Shown here: piece by piece, positions 25,334 to 34,765 of the stretch | Position numbering within the stretch: the stretch's first letter is position 1 | Layout of the letters: every line of letters starts with the position of its first letter | NCBI GenBank assembly: GCA_946538445.1 | Contig: CAMNGO010000003.1 | Span: 1 to 35,787, forward strand | Reading direction: 5' to 3' | From: an uncultured Lachnospiraceae bacterium | GTDB taxonomy: Bacteria > Bacillota > Clostridia > Lachnospirales > Lachnospiraceae | Length of the DNA: 35,787 nucleotides | Notes under the pieces: model-generated | What the model was told of the DNA's origin: nothing | Databases searched by the model: none | Seen by the model: only the letters and a program-made list of their open reading frames with translations | Program-made: the position numbers and the translations under genes

Positions 25334-28300
25334 ATGGAAAGAGAGGTTAAGTATATGCATCGTACATGGAAGAAGATCCTTGCATTAACGATAGCAGCGG
25401 TTCTTCTGTTAGGCAGCAGCAGTCTGTCCTGGACTACAGAATCCGCTTACGCTTCCCAGGTGCAGGATCAACAGGATGAACTTACCTCAGATAAAACGGT
25501 CAAAAGGACTGACGGACATGCCACGGAGAAAGAATCGGACAATGAAGATAATGAAGATAGCTCAGAAGGAAATACCAAAGAATCTTTGTCAGAAAGTGAC
25601 AAATCGGAAGAAAGCACATCAGATGAAAAAACTACTGAAGAAGGGTCTTCCGAAGAAGAGCAAGGGCAAGGGGACTCTTCTGAAGAGAAACAGCCTGAAG
25701 AACTGTCTTCCGAAGACAAATCTACCGAGGAGAAATCATCGGAAGGTACCTCAGCTGAAGAGTCTTCCACCCAGCCGTCACCGGAAGAAGCAAGCTCGGA
25801 AGAAACGATTCTTAAAGACAAAGAGAATTATACCCTCCTGTCCTCATCCGGACCGCACAACGTGGATATGCCCAATGTCACCAGCCATTATTTCCGGCTT
25901 CAGAGAGACAGTAAAAAGGTCAGCTCCGCTTCCGGCACATACCTTAAAGTAGTGGGTAATGTCAATGAAGCCTCCAGGTATATTTCCACTGAGATGGCAG
26001 ATGGGGCACTCTACAGTTTTACACCTCGAAAAACTTCCTCCACCACGGTATCTGTCGGAGGTGGAAGCGGGGGAAGCATCTCTTTAACCGCAGTAGCGGG
26101 AACAAACAGGCAACGCTTTGGAGATGTCTATGACGCTGTAAAAGCAGGCCGCATCAGCAGCAAGGTGTTCAACCTGTCAAAATGTTCCGACAATCCTTAT
26201 GCCCTGTATACCAATGTAGGCACCTGGTATGATACTTCCACAAGAAAAACCTATTCCGTGGACATGAAGATGGAGGTGACCGGGTATCTGTTTCCCTCCG
26301 AGAAGATTCGGAAACAGCTGTATAATAATTATACGGCACCTTATGTGGGATTCAACAGCAACATGATTGGAATCACTGTCATGGGGACGGATTATGTGCA
26401 GACTGCTTTAACCTTCTATTATCATGGAACAAGCACTGAGATATCCAATCTGCATGGTGTGATTCAATTCTGTGATGTGGATGCACAGCAGGGTGTGGAT
26501 TTTGGAAGCGGTTTTCAGAAGATTATTATGTTCAATACCTCCGGATCTCATTTGCAGTATAATCCTTCAGGTATCATGGGAAGCAGCCACGGATATGTCT
26601 CCAGCCGGACGGTGGAAAACGTGAAATCAGGGAATGCCAATACTACAGTCCTCGGAGTATTTACCGGATCAAAAGTATCCTGCCGCTGGACGATAGCAAA
26701 ATGTGACCACAAAGACACAGGTGGGTCTGCTTCCTACGGAGTGTCTTCCGGATTTGGAATTCCTGCCGACAGCACTCTGGCAAATGCCATCTCTTATTAC
26801 AAAAGTAACAGTACCGGTTTTTTGGGTATCTATACAGACTTAGGTCTGATTACTCTCCCTCCCAGGATTGACAAGAATGAATATAGTGGGAAGGTGGACT
26901 CTTCCAAGTCTGCCATCAATCAGAAAGAGATGAGCCTTGCTGACCGGGAGGAGGAGATGACTTTTGTGCTGGCCTCAGCCGCGGCATCCCCCTCTGACAT
27001 TACGAAAGCCAAATATATCACCTACAACATAACAGATACATTGGAAGCTGCATTTTCCCTGAAAGAGGATGGAGTGAAAGTATATACCGAAAAATCAGTC
27101 GAGAATTCGTCGAACACCTACAGTGATGTGACCGGACAGTTCACCGTTACGGTCAGCAATCAGGCGGACCACCGTACCAAGATTGTGGTAGCGGCAAAGG
27201 CAGACTCCCTTAATATGGCATCATTCTACGGAAGAACCTATTACGTTCACATCCCGGTAAGGATTCGGACCGAGGAAGAACTGGAAGCTTTTGGTCTGTC
27301 CCTTTCGAACTGGTATCAGAAGGATGAGTCCCTCGGGAAAGCGATCGGAAGCAAGCAAAGCTATCGAGGCCTTATCGCCGTCGGAAACAATTCTCAACTC
27401 TATGTAGTATCCAATCAAGGCACTTCGAATACTTTGACCAGTCCCACTAACGGAGTGCGCATTCCCATGCGTGTCTTAATCCGTAAGTATGGGGATGACA
27501 AAGAAACACCGGTAAAAGGAGTGACCTTCGCCTTATATGGCGGGGAACCGGGAAAGGATAATGACGGGAAAAAACCTTTGATGACCGCAGTGACAGATGA
27601 AGAAGGTTATGCATGTTTTGAACCGCAGACAGGATCATTTTTTAATGCCTCCTATGGGGACGGACCCTATTATATCGCGGAGCTTTCTGTTCCGGACCAA
27701 TATAAAGATATATGGAGTCCTTCGGTTGATGCTGATTGGAAATATGTGATTGAGAAGCTTCCTGATCTTTCCCTTTTGGAGAAAAGAGAAGATATGATCA
27801 CGAAAATCATTACCAAGGATGAAGGCTATCTGGATCATACTCTAAGGAATCATGAGAAAGAAAATAAAGAGAATTCCGTGAGAGCTTATAAGAAGAGCAG
27901 TGATACCGGAGAATACCTGGGAGGAGCACAGTTCGTGCTTTCCGAGTGGTCCGAGAAAAAGGGAGAATATGTCGAGTTAATGCCTCTGACTGAAGGCAAG
28001 GATGAGAATGGAGATATCTATTACAGTAATGGAGCTCCTTTCCGTAACACCATGGACAATCTCGGCAGATATAAGGTGCTGGAAACCAAGGCACCTGCAG
28101 GATGTCTCCTGGCTCATGATGCCTGGGAGTTCACCATGGGAGAGGAAACGGAAAAGATTGTCCACACCTTCGATAATGCATTGCAAAAGGTGGCTTTGGA
28201 GATCCTGAAAAAGGGAGAAGACGGTAAGCTGCTTCCTAAGGTAGTCTTCCAGGTAAAAGCCGCAGAGGACATATATGCTCCATGGGCATCAGAAGAATCC

Positions 28301-30277
28301 GGGGACAAAAGCAGCTCCCTCCTTGTATCCAAAGGTACGGTGGTTGATACCATTACAACTGATGAGGAAGGGATTGCAAAAAGTACAGAGGGTCACGAAC
28401 TGTATGTGGGAGAGTATCTGGTCGAGGAGATCCAAGGAGCAGAGGACTACGTAATGAGCACTGAGCCTCATAGAATCAGTCTGGAGTACTCGTCTGAGAT
28501 CAAGGAACCGGTAATCCTGCATCAGATTAGTCTGAGCAACCCCAGGATGCAGCCTGCTATGGCTGTGGCAAAGCTTGCTGACCACACAGTAAATCCGGTG
28601 GGAGAGGATGTGAAGTTCAATCGAACCAGCGGACGTTACGAAGAAGAAAAGGTGGATGGCATCTATAACAGTGAGGAAACCGTTGATTTTACAATTACTG
28701 TGACCAATACCGGAAATGTAGACTTGCTTGATCTTAGACTGGAAGATTCCATGGATGAACTTAGTGAAGAACAGGGATACAGTCTGAAAGAATTTGTGCA
28801 GGAGGAGGCCTCCTGTTTCCAGATACCTAAAGAGGGCTATTATGTATCTGAGAAAGGGAACAAAGTAACCGTTTCCTATGAGAATGATAATCCCATGAAT
28901 CTCATATTGGACCGGCTTCCGGTACAGGATTCCGTAAAAGTCCATTTCCTCACAAAAGTCAAAAAAGGAGCAGCAAATGTATATCATCTGAAGAATGATG
29001 TGAAACTGACCGCCAGATACCAGGCAGTACAGGGAAACGATGTGGAACTGAAATTAAAGGATGTTCCCACGGAAGATTTATTGGACGAAGATGGAAATCC
29101 TCTGACAGAAGACTGGGATCACATCAATATCCCGGGTGAACCGGCCGCTAAGGTTGCAAAACTTGCAAATAAAACCACAGGAGCTGTTCTGAAAGACGGT
29201 CGCTATGAAGGGAGGAAAAAGGAAGGCCTGTATGAATATGGGGAAAATGTAGATTTCACACTTACCGTAACCAATTCCGGCACAGCAGAACTATACCAGA
29301 TTCTGGTGAAGGACACACCGGAATCCGAATTGTACGAATCTCTGGAAAGCGGATCCATTCAGCTGGCAGAAGGAACATTCATTACAGAACAAGGCCATGA
29401 AGTGCATGCAGTGACCAAAGAACAGGAAGATAAGAGAAGTTACGGACTCTTGTTGGACACCTTATCTGCCGGTGACAGCGTAGAACTCCATCTCATCGGG
29501 AAGGTAAAATCCGGTGCCAAGGCAGCGACATCTCTCAGAAACCATGTTGTGATATCCGCGGAATATCAGGCAAGAATAGACAGTTTTATCTCTGTTCCCC
29601 ACACCCCGGAGATGGAAGACGAGGATACCATCGGCATCGCTACTCCGAATCTGGTCATCGCCAAACTTGCTGATAAGACCAAGGGAGTTAAATTAAAGAA
29701 GGGAAGATATACAGGAACCAAGAAACCCGGTACCTATCAGGCAGGAGACAGTGTGATCTTCAGCTTAAATATCACTAATAATGGAAAGGGAACGGCCAAG
29801 GAGCTTGTAATTACAGAGCACCCATCCGGAAAACTGACCAAATACGTAAGCCCTGTAGGATATCAGGTAAATGAGGGTGATACTCTCACCACAGCCAAGG
29901 GGAATACCGTCGAAGTGAAAAGTGTCTCCGCAGATAAGGTTACTCTAGATCAGCTTCTCCCCGGAGACTCTGTGGAGATATGCTATGAATGTAAAGTAAG
30001 ACAACAGATAAAAACTGTGCGGAACCTGAAAAACCAGGCCAGGGTAACGGGAAAGAATCCGGACGGCAGTAAGATTCCTGACACACCGGAGATGAAGGAT
30101 GAAGACAACATACATCTGAAAAAGATTTCCCCTCCATCCTCCAAATCACCAGCTTATCCCTCCTCCTATCCTAAGACCGGAGACAGTAGTAACACGGCAG
30201 TAAATCTGGCTATAGCAGGTTTGGCACTGCTGGGCATCTTGTATTCTGTCCGCAGACGGAGGAAACATAGCTCTTAA
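25334..30277 (+). CDS. Large cell-wall-anchored surface protein/adhesin (signal peptide, Ser/Glu-rich region, SpaA/Cna-B-like domains, three DUF11-like repeats, sortase motif YPKTG); start may be 25355
   Basis: N-terminal ILALTIAAVLLLGSSSL signal; Lys-rich SpaA-like domains (e.g. ETPVKGVTFALYG, YLGGAQFVLSEW..KAPAGCLL); C-terminal SYPKTGD-hydrophobic-RRRRK. Confidence 0.85.
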   Translation: MEREVKYMHRTWKKILALTIAAVLLLGSSSLSWTTESAYASQVQDQQDELTSDKTVKRTDGHATEKESDNEDNEDSSEGNTKESLSESDKSEESTSDEKTTEEGSSEEEQGQGDSSEEKQPEELSSEDKSTEEKSSEGTSAEESSTQPSPEEASSEETILKDKENYTLLSSSGPHNVDMPNVTSHYFRLQRDSKKVSSASGTYLKVVGNVNEASRYISTEMADGALYSFTPRKTSSTTVSVGGGSGGSISLTAVAGTNRQRFGDVYDAVKAGRISSKVFNLSKCSDNPYALYTNVGTWYDTSTRKTYSVDMKMEVTGYLFPSEKIRKQLYNNYTAPYVGFNSNMIGITVMGTDYVQTALTFYYHGTSTEISNLHGVIQFCDVDAQQGVDFGSGFQKIIMFNTSGSHLQYNPSGIMGSSHGYVSSRTVENVKSGNANTTVLGVFTGSKVSCRWTIAKCDHKDTGGSASYGVSSGFGIPADSTLANAISYYKSNSTGFLGIYTDLGLITLPPRIDKNEYSGKVDSSKSAINQKEMSLADREEEMTFVLASAAASPSDITKAKYITYNITDTLEAAFSLKEDGVKVYTEKSVENSSNTYSDVTGQFTVTVSNQADHRTKIVVAAKADSLNMASFYGRTYYVHIPVRIRTEEELEAFGLSLSNWYQKDESLGKAIGSKQSYRGLIAVGNNSQLYVVSNQGTSNTLTSPTNGVRIPMRVLIRKYGDDKETPVKGVTFALYGGEPGKDNDGKKPLMTAVTDEEGYACFEPQTGSFFNASYGDGPYYIAELSVPDQYKDIWSPSVDADWKYVIEKLPDLSLLEKREDMITKIITKDEGYLDHTLRNHEKENKENSVRAYKKSSDTGEYLGGAQFVLSEWSEKKGEYVELMPLTEGKDENGDIYYSNGAPFRNTMDNLGRYKVLETKAPAGCLLAHDAWEFTMGEETEKIVHTFDNALQKVALEILKKGEDGKLLPKVVFQVKAAEDIYAPWASEESGDKSSSLLVSKGTVVDTITTDEEGIAKSTEGHELYVGEYLVEEIQGAEDYVMSTEPHRISLEYSSEIKEPVILHQISLSNPRMQPAMAVAKLADHTVNPVGEDVKFNRTSGRYEEEKVDGIYNSEETVDFTITVTNTGNVDLLDLRLEDSMDELSEEQGYSLKEFVQEEASCFQIPKEGYYVSEKGNKVTVSYENDNPMNLILDRLPVQDSVKVHFLTKVKKGAANVYHLKNDVKLTARYQAVQGNDVELKLKDVPTEDLLDEDGNPLTEDWDHINIPGEPAAKVAKLANKTTGAVLKDGRYEGRKKEGLYEYGENVDFTLTVTNSGTAELYQILVKDTPESELYESLESGSIQLAEGTFITEQGHEVHAVTKEQEDKRSYGLLLDTLSAGDSVELHLIGKVKSGAKAATSLRNHVVISAEYQARIDSFISVPHTPEMEDEDTIGIATPNLVIAKLADKTKGVKLKKGRYTGTKKPGTYQAGDSVIFSLNITNNGKGTAKELVITEHPSGKLTKYVSPVGYQVNEGDTLTTAKGNTVEVKSVSADKVTLDQLLPGDSVEICYECKVRQQIKTVRNLKNQARVTGKNPDGSKIPDTPEMKDEDNIHLKKISPPSSKSPAYPSSYPKTGDSSNTAVNLAIAGLALLGILYSVRRRRKHSS
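28558..30111 (+). repeat. Three tandem DUF11-like domain repeats inside the surface protein
   Basis: AVAKLADHT...GRYEEEKVDGIYNSEETVDFTITVTNTG; KVAKLANKT...GRYEGRKKEGLYEYGENVDFTLTVTNSG; VIAKLADKT...GRYTGTKKPGTYQAGDSVIFSLNITNNG. Confidence 0.75.
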
Positions 30278-30539: not shown

Positions 30540-30549
30540 TGTTTGGTAT

Positions 30550-30623
30550 CGAGGCGTGGCTCAGTTTGGTAGAGCGCTGCGTTCGGGACGCAGAGGCCGT
30601 GGGTTCGAGTCCCGTCGCCTCGA
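30550..30623 (+). tRNA. tRNA-Pro (anticodon CGG)
   Basis: CGAGGCG/CGCCTCG acceptor stem, CTGCG-TTCGGGA-CGCAG anticodon arm, GTGGG-TTCGAGT-CCCGT T arm; no encoded CCA. Confidence 0.93.
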
Positions 30624-30632
30624 TTAGGGTTA

Positions 30633-30687: not shown

Positions 30688-30727
30688 CTTGAGTCAAGTC
30701 AAAATTGACTTGACGACTTGACTCAAG
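30688..30727. repeat. Nested palindromic repeat between tRNA-Pro and int
   Basis: CTTGAGTCAAGTC ... GACTTGACTCAAG (13-bp arms), with an alternative inner palindrome GTCAAGTCAA-AA-TTGACTTGAC. Confidence 0.85.
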
Positions 30728-30736
30728 TAATCAGCT

Positions 30737-32041
30737 TCACAAAGCACGATCGAGCTTAAAGTCCAAAAGATTATCTACTCTTCTCTGCTTTTCAGCCGAT
30801 GACTTTCTGTCAAAGTGGTAATAATTTTCAGATGTATTGATGTCAGTATGCCCCATAAGTGAGATTACCAGGTTTTTGTCAAAACCTGCATCGAGAATAA
30901 TGCTGCAGAAAGTCTTCCGGATCTTGTGTGTGGATTTCTTTTGCAGACCACAACTGTCACATATCCGATAAAGTCTTTTTCTTAATGTTTCCGCAGTCAT
31001 ACGCTCTCCGGAGGAATTGGTTGCCAGATATTCCGTAAATGGCCTTAATTTCTTCAACGTCGTAATGATCCAGGCATAATCGGCAGGGATAAAGGCTTTT
31101 CGGAATCCGGCTTCCGTCTTTGGGGAATCCTTCACATCGTAATGATATTTCCCGTTTTCATCCCGCCACTTCGTCTGCGTTCTCTTTACTTCGAAACAAG
31201 TATCAGACAAAAAATCACTGTATTTCAGTGTGGACATCTCTCCGACTCTTAATCCGGTCAGGATCATCAGAAGAAGACAAAGGTTATGGACATCCTGATG
31301 GTCAAGCAGGTACTGAATAAGTACCGGTAGTTCACGGTCTGTGAATACCTGTGACACTGGACTTTTATGAACTTTTCTTGGATGAACTTCCAACTCAGAA
31401 AATACATCGGCATAACTGTAATCAATCAGCCTATCCCGACGTGCCCTTTTCAGGATATTCTTTGTCAAAGTTTTCATACTTGAAAAGGCTCTGCTGGTCA
31501 ACCTAAGATTCCCAACAGATTCTTCTAAAAAATCAACCATACCTTCCATAGAAATATCAGATATTCTTTTCGTGTTCCACTCCTGATTTGTATAGAACCG
31601 TTTGAAATCAGAATCATATCTGTTGACTGTGGCTTTTGATACGTTACCGTAGTCAATTAATTTTTCTCTGAATCTGTAATATACCTCTTCGAAAGTAAGA
31701 TCACCATCTTCTTCTCTGATATTCTCAATTAGAAAATCCTCCAGTGCCTTTCTTGTTTTCCTGGCGATTTGCCTCTTCCCTTTTGGTTTTGTCGGATCTT
31801 TAATATTTGTTACATAGTAACCTCGCTTATTCTGCCATATGGCATAAGGATGTTTTTTCAAGATCTGAGCTCTTTTATTCTGTATCATGTCTTGCTTTAC
31901 AGCAGCTGCAATCTCATGACTTATTATACCACTTTCCGCCCAGGTTTTAATTAAAGAATTGAGGTCCTCCTTCATGTGTTCGAAATCCTTTCTATAGATT
32001 TCTAAACAATATGGAAAGATTATCGAATCATACTTTTTCAA
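30737..32041 (-). CDS. int: Tyrosine recombinase/phage-type integrase
   Basis: Catalytic set visible: TGLRVGE, SPKTEAG, HKIRK, GHTD, NYYHF. TTG start at 32041, or an internal ATG at ~31975. Confidence 0.93.
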   Translation of the reverse strand: MKKYDSIIFPYCLEIYRKDFEHMKEDLNSLIKTWAESGIISHEIAAAVKQDMIQNKRAQILKKHPYAIWQNKRGYYVTNIKDPTKPKGKRQIARKTRKALEDFLIENIREEDGDLTFEEVYYRFREKLIDYGNVSKATVNRYDSDFKRFYTNQEWNTKRISDISMEGMVDFLEESVGNLRLTSRAFSSMKTLTKNILKRARRDRLIDYSYADVFSELEVHPRKVHKSPVSQVFTDRELPVLIQYLLDHQDVHNLCLLLMILTGLRVGEMSTLKYSDFLSDTCFEVKRTQTKWRDENGKYHYDVKDSPKTEAGFRKAFIPADYAWIITTLKKLRPFTEYLATNSSGERMTAETLRKRLYRICDSCGLQKKSTHKIRKTFCSIILDAGFDKNLVISLMGHTDINTSENYYHFDRKSSAEKQRRVDNLLDFKLDRAL

Positions 32042-32093
32042 GAGAGAATATAGTATTACCAGAGAATGGAAACCAGAAAAATGAAAAACGAAA

Positions 32094-32508
32094 ATGTCAT
32101 CATATTATGCTTGTAAGTGATCAGTATTATAAGGAGATGACATCGTAGAAGAATGTATTATCAGAAATTGTTGGCATACCTTTTTGGTAATCGTTCCCTC
32201 TCAATCAATAGAATTGAGGCACGATGGCTTACGTGGTTAAGTATGAGTAACCCGTTGGATTAGATAATCGCAGTTGTGATATACCTGCAGGAAATGACAA
32301 ATATCACACCGTTCTTTTCCCAAACGGTAGTGGATTATGGGATAAGAATTGCTGTGTAAGCACAGCTAAGGGCTCCGACTGGAAGACAGGGAGTATATTT
32401 TGCCGGAAAACCGGCTAACGAACTGAAGCAACTGTTTTTTAAAATTTGTCACTATTATCTTTGTGTTGCCATAGAGGGGAAGGACATGGGACTTCCCCTC
32501 TATGGCAA
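32094..32508 (+). ncRNA. Candidate structured non-coding RNA / multi-hairpin region (strand inferred)
   Basis: No supported ORF; at least seven local stems, listed in findings. Confidence 0.45.
32466..32508. repeat. 17-bp perfect inverted repeat
   Basis: TTGCCATAGAGGGGAAG - gacatggga - CTTCCCCTCTATGGCAA. Confidence 0.9.
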
Positions 32509-32556
32509 TCACCTTTTAAATACGTTTTTTGTGACTAATCTGATGGAGGTGGTGAA

Positions 32557-33429
32557 ATGTCACGTAACCTGAGGCAACAGGCCAGAGGAATCATCTTTGC
32601 CGCATTTCGCGAAAACTTGGATAAACGTGCTATGAAAGCAGATGGAAAGGGGGAACGTAATATTTTTTCATATACATCCAGAAATCATCTGTTGGATGTG
32701 ATCAACAATTTTTGTAATACTGTGAAGGACGACATTCCCAGAAATCCTTCTGAACTGACTCGTAGGCATGTAAGGATCTTTCTTGATCAAAAGGCCCTGG
32801 AAGGCTGTAGCCAGAAGACATTGGACACCTATCGTAGTGACTTAGTCAAATTTGGAAAACTGATAGGTAAAGACCTGGATCCGGGGCGTGTCCCGGCACA
32901 AGTGACCAATGTCACACATAGAGGTGCAGGAGATATGATCTCACATGATGACTTATCAAAGATTATCGCCTATGCAAAATTATATCCGAGCAGATCAGGA
33001 GCATGCATCCAACTGGAGAAATTGCTCGGTATCCGCGTGGGAGATATGGCTTATGGTATGAAAATAAAGGATGACATCTTGGAGATTAAATGTAAAAACG
33101 GGAAGATTCTCATACGGAGGATCACGTCAGAGATAAAGGATATTCTATCATCGGAACAATTTCTGTCTATGATCCATGAGGATGGGAGAATAATCACTCC
33201 CAAAGATAACAGTATCAACACTTATCTACGCAGAGTAGAGGATAAGCTTGGAATCGAGCGACATTCTTTCCATTCCATCCGCAGAAGGATAGCTCAAGAT
33301 CAATATAATTATTATAGGGAGATGGGCTATACCCGGACAGAGGCCCTGTCGAAGGTATCAGTATGGCTCAATCATGGTGAGAAAAGGGAAAAGATGATTC
33401 TGAAGAGTTATATACGAGACGCATGGTAG
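32557..33429 (+). CDS. Divergent tyrosine recombinase-like protein
   Basis: N-terminal SAM-like core-binding region (SQKTLDTYRSDLVKFGKL); C-terminal LGIRVGDMA (Arg), HSFHSIRRR (HxxR), WLNHGEK (His), and a terminal Tyr in LKSYI. Confidence 0.65.
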   Translation: MSRNLRQQARGIIFAAFRENLDKRAMKADGKGERNIFSYTSRNHLLDVINNFCNTVKDDIPRNPSELTRRHVRIFLDQKALEGCSQKTLDTYRSDLVKFGKLIGKDLDPGRVPAQVTNVTHRGAGDMISHDDLSKIIAYAKLYPSRSGACIQLEKLLGIRVGDMAYGMKIKDDILEIKCKNGKILIRRITSEIKDILSSEQFLSMIHEDGRIITPKDNSINTYLRRVEDKLGIERHSFHSIRRRIAQDQYNYYREMGYTRTEALSKVSVWLNHGEKREKMILKSYIRDAW

Positions 33430-33670: not shown

Positions 33671-34765
33671 TTAGTGTTTCAGCTTTTTTATAACTTCCTC
33701 AAGCTTTTGATGATCCTCATTTGAGAAAAGAGTCTCATGCGAAGATGCATGTCTCCGGAGTGCTGCTTTTATCCTGGAACGATTCCGTGAATCTTTTTCA
33801 ATCTTTTCAATGATGGGGAATAATTCTTCTACATCAAGAATGAGGGGATACTGGTATTGGTTTTCCCAAGTTGAACAATCACGAAGAAGATTCACCAGCC
33901 AGTTGTCTTTCCTATTAGAGGATGAGATTTTATTTTTAAGAAATCTATCTCGTTCCCCAATCCATTTTGTAATTCTTTTTAGAATATTTTTCTCGATGGA
34001 TTTATCAAAGTAATCAGTTATCAATTCATCGGTTAACTCTGACAAACGATTTGTTTTGAAAGCACGCTTTATTCCCTGTGTACCTTTAAGACGAAACTCA
34101 AAGCGGACGAAGCTGATATTACTATCGGTATCTCGGCCAGAACAATATGTTTTGTCATATATCTTAAAATTACGGTAGCGAGATGAATGCTGTGTTTGTT
34201 TACTATTGGCATAATAAGACACTTCTTCTGTTTTATCCCCTGAGAGATTTTGAAATTTTATCTGGTTACTTAGGATCCCCGGCAGTTTGTTCATAATCAG
34301 ACGGAATACCCGATCATATTCTATAAAAGCATGATTGAGCATAAGAGTCCGGTTGATTTCGATTTCTTTCACTCCTGCATTATCCAAACATATATCTATC
34401 CCATATTTTGTAAACAGATGATTCTGGATGGATTTGATATATTTTTTATAATCTTTAATGCTTAGGCAATGAAGATTCTTATGAACCGGATCCTCGGGAA
34501 CCGATAGAGTCATAAAACAAAAAGGTATGGGCAGTCCCCTTTGGCTTAACACACCAGCACGCATGGATACAATCATTCCGTCCCCCTTAATAGACAAGTG
34601 AGAAAAAGCTTTTCCATGCCTGGCATAATAGTAAGGGGGATGCTTATTGACTTTTATGATTCCTTCTTTTGTCAGGAAATCAATATCGTAGATGTCTTTG
34701 ATGATTATGTTGTTAAGTACGATCTGATCAATCAGTACATTTTCATTTACAATACTTTCAATCAT
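33671..34765 (-). CDS. Putative replication initiation protein (phage gene II/X-like)
   Basis: 364 aa; GVKEIEINRTLMLNHAFIEYDRVFRLIM and NFKIYDKTY...SFVRFEFRLK resemble filamentous-phage/plasmid CRI-type Rep proteins; GGAG RBS upstream. Confidence 0.45.
   Translation of the reverse strand: MIESIVNENVLIDQIVLNNIIIKDIYDIDFLTKEGIIKVNKHPPYYYARHGKAFSHLSIKGDGMIVSMRAGVLSQRGLPIPFCFMTLSVPEDPVHKNLHCLSIKDYKKYIKSIQNHLFTKYGIDICLDNAGVKEIEINRTLMLNHAFIEYDRVFRLIMNKLPGILSNQIKFQNLSGDKTEEVSYYANSKQTQHSSRYRNFKIYDKTYCSGRDTDSNISFVRFEFRLKGTQGIKRAFKTNRLSELTDELITDYFDKSIEKNILKRITKWIGERDRFLKNKISSSNRKDNWLVNLLRDCSTWENQYQYPLILDVEELFPIIEKIEKDSRNRSRIKAALRRHASSHETLFSNEDHQKLEEVIKKLKH

What the first reader, a model, noticed from the sequence alone, without database searches (positions are those of the whole stretch)
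32094..32508. Hairpin-dense ~400-nt non-coding segment: candidate undescribed structured RNA inside a mobile element
The gap between int and the second tyrosine recombinase has no supported ORF. It can fold into a series of local stems. (1) ATGTCATC/GATGACAT, 32094-32101 with 32136-32143. (2) ATCGT..CTCAAT/ATTGAG..ACGAT, 32190-32225. (3) ACG-t-GGTTA/TAACC-CGT, 32231-32255. (4) TGTGATAT/ATATCACA, 32275-32308. (5) CAC-CGTT/AACGGT-a-GTG, ~32307-32332. (6) GCTGTG-UAAG-CACAGC, 32351-32366. (7) GCCGG-AAAA-CCGGC, 32402-32415. (8) A 17-bp stem at 32466-32508. Several loops are A-rich on the plus strand, which favours plus-strand transcription. I could not match it to T-box, raiA, group I/II intron or retron signatures from memory.
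Basis: partly seen in the sequence, partly recalled or inferred. Interest (0 to 1): 0.75.

Follow-up and report, generated by a model that had tools for sequence, protein, structure and literature searches.

The report
Recombinase gene with folded upstream hairpin
The gap between two DNA-recombining enzyme genes of an integrated mobile element holds a long near-perfect hairpin that relatives of the second enzyme also carry just upstream of their genes, so it is probably a folded recognition site or RNA control element for that enzyme; the smaller stems beside it may be a new structured RNA, but this is not proven for this copy.

Summary
All eight stems exist at the stated coordinates, but they are not equally strong. 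Stems 1-7 are only weakly denser than chance (P about 0.04 on one of three measures; + strand folding z = -1.6, - strand -3.2 without stem 8). Their sequence matches no relative except a near-identical copy in a sister species, so covariation cannot be tested here. Stem 8 is far beyond chance and is the key feature. Eighteen loci of the same small tyrosine-recombinase group, on Clostridia plasmids and chromosomes, carry such a hairpin 20-210 nt upstream of the gene. Its base is conserved (TGT..GCATTAAC / GTTAATGC..ACA), its apex varies, and 8 of 16 have one bulged base on the 3' arm, the window included. G.U pairs fall on the gene-sense strand. The noncoding leader before it is structured in relatives, with compensatory changes in three pairs of relatives. 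No Rfam family fits. Best reading: a module of recombinase, folded hairpin and structured noncoding leader, the hairpin working like an integron attC or CTX-phage attP, or else as an RNA control element. No recombination or transcript is shown.

The parts
30549..30624 (+). tRNA-Pro (CGG); the element sits just downstream
   Evidence: ARAGORN and Rfam; identity to sister genome G013 rises from about 90% to above 99% at about 30707
30737..32041 (-). phage-type tyrosine integrase, 434 aa, next to the tRNA
   Evidence: Pfam PF00589 E 2e-18, PHROG integrase
32089..32460 (+). noncoding leader with local stems 1-7; strand assigned by analogy with relatives
   Evidence: stems verified, folding z -1.6 (+) and -3.2 (-), no ORF above 48 aa
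32463..32512 (+). hallmark hairpin: GTG clamp, 17-bp stem, 9-nt loop, one bulged T (32509) on the 3' arm
   Evidence: fold; 0 of 300 shuffles give even 12 bp; counterparts upstream of relatives
32545..32549 (+). GGAGG ribosome-binding-site-like sequence of the recombinase gene
   Evidence: read directly from the sequence
32557..33429 (+). small tyrosine recombinase, 290 aa, with R160, H239-x-x-R242, H273 and Y285 conserved
   Evidence: Pfam PF02899 E 8e-4 (below cut-off), PHROG integrase; Foldseek to XerA and lambda integrase E 4e-8 and 2e-7; conserved columns
33671..34765 (-). 364-aa protein of unknown family; one relative found, on small plasmid pRGI00704
35018..35599 (+). small serine recombinase (resolvase/invertase)
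   Evidence: Pfam PF00239 E 9.5e-43

Best explanation
The segment is the 5' module of a distinct group of small tyrosine recombinases that live on Clostridia plasmids and plasmid-like integrated elements. Its core is the hairpin at 32463-32512: a base conserved across the group, a variable apex, and a one-base bulge on the 3' arm in many members. I propose that the recombinase encoded downstream recognises this hairpin in folded form, when the gene-sense strand is single-stranded (rolling-circle replication, transfer) or extruded, and recombines there, for example to resolve plasmid multimers or to integrate and excise. This would work like integron attC or CTX-phage attP(+). The preceding ~370 nt is a hairpin-rich noncoding leader that probably controls the recombinase or helps form the site. 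Shown: conservation of the hairpin, its strand asymmetry, and structured leaders in relatives. Inferred: binding, recombination, the single-strand requirement, transcription.
For: 16 of 18 group members have a strong hairpin within 250 nt upstream of the gene, against 5 of 15 looser tyrosine recombinases. The conserved boxes sit at the base while the distance between them varies (loops, internal loops and stems of very different length), which suits a folded hairpin and not a fixed-spacing duplex site. The base consensus is nTGTnnGCATTAAC / GTTAATGC..ACA. A one-base bulge lies on the 3' arm at the same place in 8 of 16 (window, L014, L029, L016, L046, L047, L048, L050; about six lineages) and never on the 5' arm there. 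G.U pairs: 19 on the + strand, 3 on the - strand. No terminator-like T tail in the window. Near relatives L014 and L029 differ by paired changes that keep the hairpin perfect. Rep proteins of rolling-circle type lie next to the recombinase, in the same orientation, in L013 and L016 and probably L007. Catalytic residues conserved. Tree places the window protein in the hairpin-bearing group.
Against: No recombination product, empty site or second hairpin copy was seen; the own genome holds one copy. G.U pairs and the bulge fit an RNA hairpin equally well. The window's own hairpin has no G.U pair, and its box (GCCATAGAG) differs from the usual GCATTAAC. Hairpins near genes are common: 5 of 15 looser relatives also have one. 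L045 and L049 have weak versions. In L045, L049 and L050 the hairpin is more than 100 nt from the gene.
Confidence: 0.4

Rival explanations
1. The leader and hairpin act as RNA: a long structured 5' untranslated region (or a separate noncoding RNA) of the recombinase gene, whose conserved hairpin is bound by the recombinase or another protein to regulate its expression or plasmid copy number.
For: Gene-sense fold with G.U pairs and few other mismatches; covarying leaders in three pairs of relatives; leader, hairpin and gene keep their order and orientation; an SD-like GGAGG follows.
Against: Distance from hairpin to start codon varies from about 20 to about 180 nt, so a fixed translational operator is unlikely; - strand folding scores are as strong as +; promoter-like sites no more than in shuffles.
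Confidence: 0.3
2. The region is a replication origin of a plasmid-like element: structured single-strand or double-strand origin DNA that happens to lie next to the recombinase gene.
For: Many relatives are small plasmids; two carry rolling-circle Rep proteins (Rep_1, Rep_OBD) and L007 has a weak HUH Rep-like neighbour; structured intergenic DNA is typical of such origins (established knowledge).
Against: The module keeps its place next to the recombinase and not next to Rep, with unrelated or no recognised Rep genes nearby. The window's own putative replication protein matches no Pfam family.
Confidence: 0.15
3. Stems 1-7 are chance folding of an ordinary intergenic region; only the long hairpin is functional, for example as a transcription barrier between divergent genes.
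For: Weak significance of stems 1-7 (P 0.04 to 0.17; z -1.6 on +); no sequence similarity of the leader to relatives.
Against: Relatives' leaders at the same place are clearly structured (z down to -5.8) with two-sided pair changes.
Confidence: 0.11
4. The leader is a guide-like RNA that directs the tyrosine recombinase to its targets, in the manner of IS110 bridge RNA.
For: A structured noncoding region is fixed next to a recombinase gene across the group.
Against: No match or complementarity beyond chance between the leader and the hairpin, the tRNA junction or other noncoding parts (one 11-mer is an artefact of overlapping query ranges). The enzyme has the usual DNA-binding recombinase fold.
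Confidence: 0.04

Closest known systems
Integron attC site with IntI integrase (PMC2727003, PMC3053210)
   Same: Tyrosine recombinase; imperfect palindrome with conserved boxes at its boundaries, unpaired base on one arm, variable terminal structure; AAC/GTT at the inner edge of the box in most relatives.
   Different: One hairpin beside its own recombinase gene, no cassette array or attI seen; recombinase is not an integron integrase by NCBIfam; window box lacks AAC/GTT; one bulge rather than two or three extrahelical bases, and no constant unpaired central spacer.
CTX-phage attP(+) and other Xer-using elements (own knowledge; Xer review PMC5357621 listed, not read)
   Same: Folded single strand of a rolling-circle element used by tyrosine recombinases.
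   Different: Those use host XerC/XerD and a dif-like core; here the element encodes its own recombinase and no dif comparison was made.
ColE1 cer site with the Rcd RNA (own knowledge)
   Same: Plasmid recombination site with a small structured RNA beside it.
   Different: cer is a duplex site used by host Xer proteins; no sequence relation tested.
Candidate structured RNAs of human microbiomes, HMP2 set (PMC8040213)
   Same: 28 candidates there are most common near integrase, sortase or phage domains, and some are palindromic.

Membership tests
Integron (IntI + attC) | Integron-integrase protein family | tested here: not met
   No NCBIfam match for the 290-aa protein, while the neighbouring integrase does match integron-integrase models below cut-off
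Integron (IntI + attC) | Boundary boxes RYYYAAC / GTTRRRY | tested here: not met
   Window box reads GCCATAGAG / CTCTATGGC; relatives GCATTAAC / GTTAATGC share only AAC/GTT. Box consensus from own knowledge
Integron (IntI + attC) | Extrahelical base on one arm of the folded site | tested here: met
   Bulged T32509 on the 3' arm, same place in 8 of 16 hairpins
Integron (IntI + attC) | Recombination of a folded single strand | not testable with these tools
   Needs biochemistry
Known RNA families (riboswitch, T-box, raiA, group I/II intron and others in Rfam 15) | Covariance-model score at the gathering threshold | tested here: not met
   None in the gap or in 16 related loci except tRNAs
One structured RNA family shared with the relatives' leaders | Shared sequence or structure with the leaders of relatives | tested here: inconclusive
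   No sequence similarity; motif TAGYCTGAAA absent from the window; relatives covary only among close pairs
Intrinsic terminator | Stem followed by a T run | tested here: not met
   Terminator scan of the window does not list the long hairpin on either strand
IS110-type bridge RNA system | DEDD/serine recombinase | tested here: not met
   Protein is a tyrosine recombinase by PHROG and by fold
Rolling-circle single-strand origin | Function as an origin, or a Rep nick site nearby | not tested
   No nick-site search was made; Rep genes lie near some relatives only

The most novel reading that the evidence does not exclude
A tyrosine recombinase works together with a structured noncoding RNA transcribed from its own leader, the RNA being needed for site choice or for assembly of the recombination complex at a folded hairpin.
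Probability: 0.05. Interest if true: 0.9.

Novelty: new variant of a known kind. Interest (0 to 1): 0.5.

Why it matters
Folded single-strand sites for tyrosine recombinases are known mainly from integrons and Xer-using phages. A plasmid-borne group in Clostridia with its own recombinase and an attC-like hairpin would widen that principle, bear on how such sites arose, and could offer a small recombination tool. If the hairpin is read as RNA instead, it would be an undescribed control of recombinase genes.

Tried and rejected
blastn of the gap in plasmids and phages: no match. Rfam at low threshold: chance hits only. Searches with the single window protein in the genome and viral collections: nothing; later viral scans failed because the machine gave no answer. 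The TAGYCTGAAA motif, seen by eye in several relatives, was tested by leave-one-out scoring: it holds for L007, L008, L014, L029, more weakly for L045, L015, L047, L050, and not for the window, so it is not claimed here. A fixed-spacing duplex core site was rejected because the distance between the conserved boxes varies. Guide-like complementarity: none. The GCATTAAC palindrome pattern alone is not specific: most genomic hits are terminators or coding. MAFFT alignments of the leaders and of the hairpin arms are too poor for a column-based covariation count, so no covariance model was built. A count on the hairpins themselves would also be circular, since they were found by their complementarity.

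Full report
Observation. The fold is stable, but on the + strand the 17-bp stem carries the significance: with it z = -5.0, without it z = -1.6 on + and -3.2 on -, against -0.9 to -1.8 for coding controls. Stem counts exceed shuffles on one of three criteria (4 against 1.4, P = 0.04; otherwise P = 0.10 and 0.17). Nothing in Rfam fits.

Setting. A tRNA-Pro lies at 30549-30624 and a phage-type integrase at 30737-32041. The sister genome G013 is about 83-95% identical in the flanking chromosome (kilobase windows) but above 99% identical from about 30707 on, with one difference in 32042-32556. So the element moved recently, and this homologue is useless for covariation. Downstream of the gap come the small tyrosine recombinase, a protein of unknown family whose one relative found is on small plasmid pRGI00704, and a small serine recombinase. 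The host is taken to be of the family Lachnospiraceae, because two relatives that share the window's family label carry that name or genus.

Relatives. Searches with the recombinase and alignments of it found members in Lachnospiraceae-type genomes, in the genus of C. beijerinckii, and on plasmids pRGI00546, pRGI00782, C. beijerinckii CP029330 and C. carboxidivorans p19. They form one group with the window's protein nearest L050 and L047 (support 87/96 for the group and 87/78 for the three). Identities to the window protein are 24-37%.

The hallmark hairpin. Of 18 members, 16 have a hairpin scoring at least 11 within 250 nt of the start codon, and L045 and L049 have a shorter one with the same box. 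Among 15 looser tyrosine recombinases, 5 have any hairpin of that score (one of them, L040, has the same kind of hairpin as the sister group L036/L037/L039). The conserved part is the base (TGT, then GCATTAAC, or CCATTAA, or GGTATTAACG in variants); the apex varies in length and shape. In the window the base reads TGTGTTGCCATAG...CTATGGCAATCAC. A one-base bulge on the 3' arm, between outer clamp and conserved box, is present in window, L014, L029, L016, L046, L047, L048 and L050. G.U pairs sum to 19 on the + strand and 3 on the - strand over 16 hairpins (L049, which misfolds, left out; flanks included; near-duplicates L014/L029 and L046/L048 counted). These asymmetries say that the gene-sense strand folds, as RNA or as single-stranded DNA; they do not choose between the two. 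It is not a terminator in the window. The pattern GCATTAAC...GTTAATGC is not specific by itself, since most other genomic copies are ordinary terminators or coding.

The leader. In relatives the 300-400 nt before the hairpin are structured (z to -5.8). Pairwise consensus folding gives z of -7.8 (L014/L029), -6.3 (L046/L048) and -4.3 (L007/L008) on the + strand, with 4, 7 and 13 pairs changed on both sides and none broken; the - strand gives -5.6, -6.8 and -6.4, so strand is not settled by this test. The broken count is zero partly because the consensus is chosen from the same alignment. No Rfam match other than tRNAs exists in these loci. The window's leader shows no sequence similarity to any of them, and the motif TAGYCTGAAA of part of the group is missing. 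Membership of the window's leader in one RNA family is therefore open.

Mechanism. The best reading is a folded recombination site next to its recombinase, working like attC (PMC2727003: conserved boundary boxes, extrahelical base that sets strand choice, variable terminal structure). It is not an integron: the enzyme matches no integron-integrase model and the box differs. Rolling-circle replication genes beside L013 and L016, and a weak candidate beside L007, oriented like the recombinase, would expose the folding strand. The main rival is an RNA leader. Binding, cleavage, transcription and recombination are all inferred.

Novelty. A limited literature search found no description; the held library lacks most subscription papers, and the microbiome RNA catalogue of PMC8040213 could not be compared by sequence. 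I rate it a new variant of a known kind (folded recombination site), with an open candidate RNA beside it.

Noticed in passing
window 30688-32652: The element is above 99% identical to that of sister species G013 while the flanking chromosome is about 90% identical, so it was acquired or exchanged recently; the jump lies at about 30707, some 80 bp past the tRNA-Pro.
   Followed up: partly
L029 and L050 leaders (same genome, different recombinase branches): First ~250 nt hold three to four repeats of an SD-plus-ATG-like unit (AAGAAGGtATTaATATG) without a long ORF; the two leaders align far above shuffles although the recombinases differ.
   Followed up: no
L033 (G779 chromosome): An IstB-like gene, as in IS21-type elements, ends just upstream of the recombinase hairpin where the leader would be (gene identity read by eye from the sequence).
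   Followed up: no
L034 (G798:C39): A 50-kb contig begins exactly at the first base of the recombinase hairpin; two large serine recombinases follow. The cause of the break is unknown.
   Followed up: partly
CP029330 (L014, L032, L042): The 29-kb C. beijerinckii plasmid record appears to be about two 14.5-kb copies, the second recombinase copy with stops, so it may be a dimeric assembly.
   Followed up: no
window 25334-30277: 1647-aa protein with SpaA, DUF11 and an LPXTG anchor, a likely sortase-anchored surface protein just before the tRNA-Pro.
   Followed up: no
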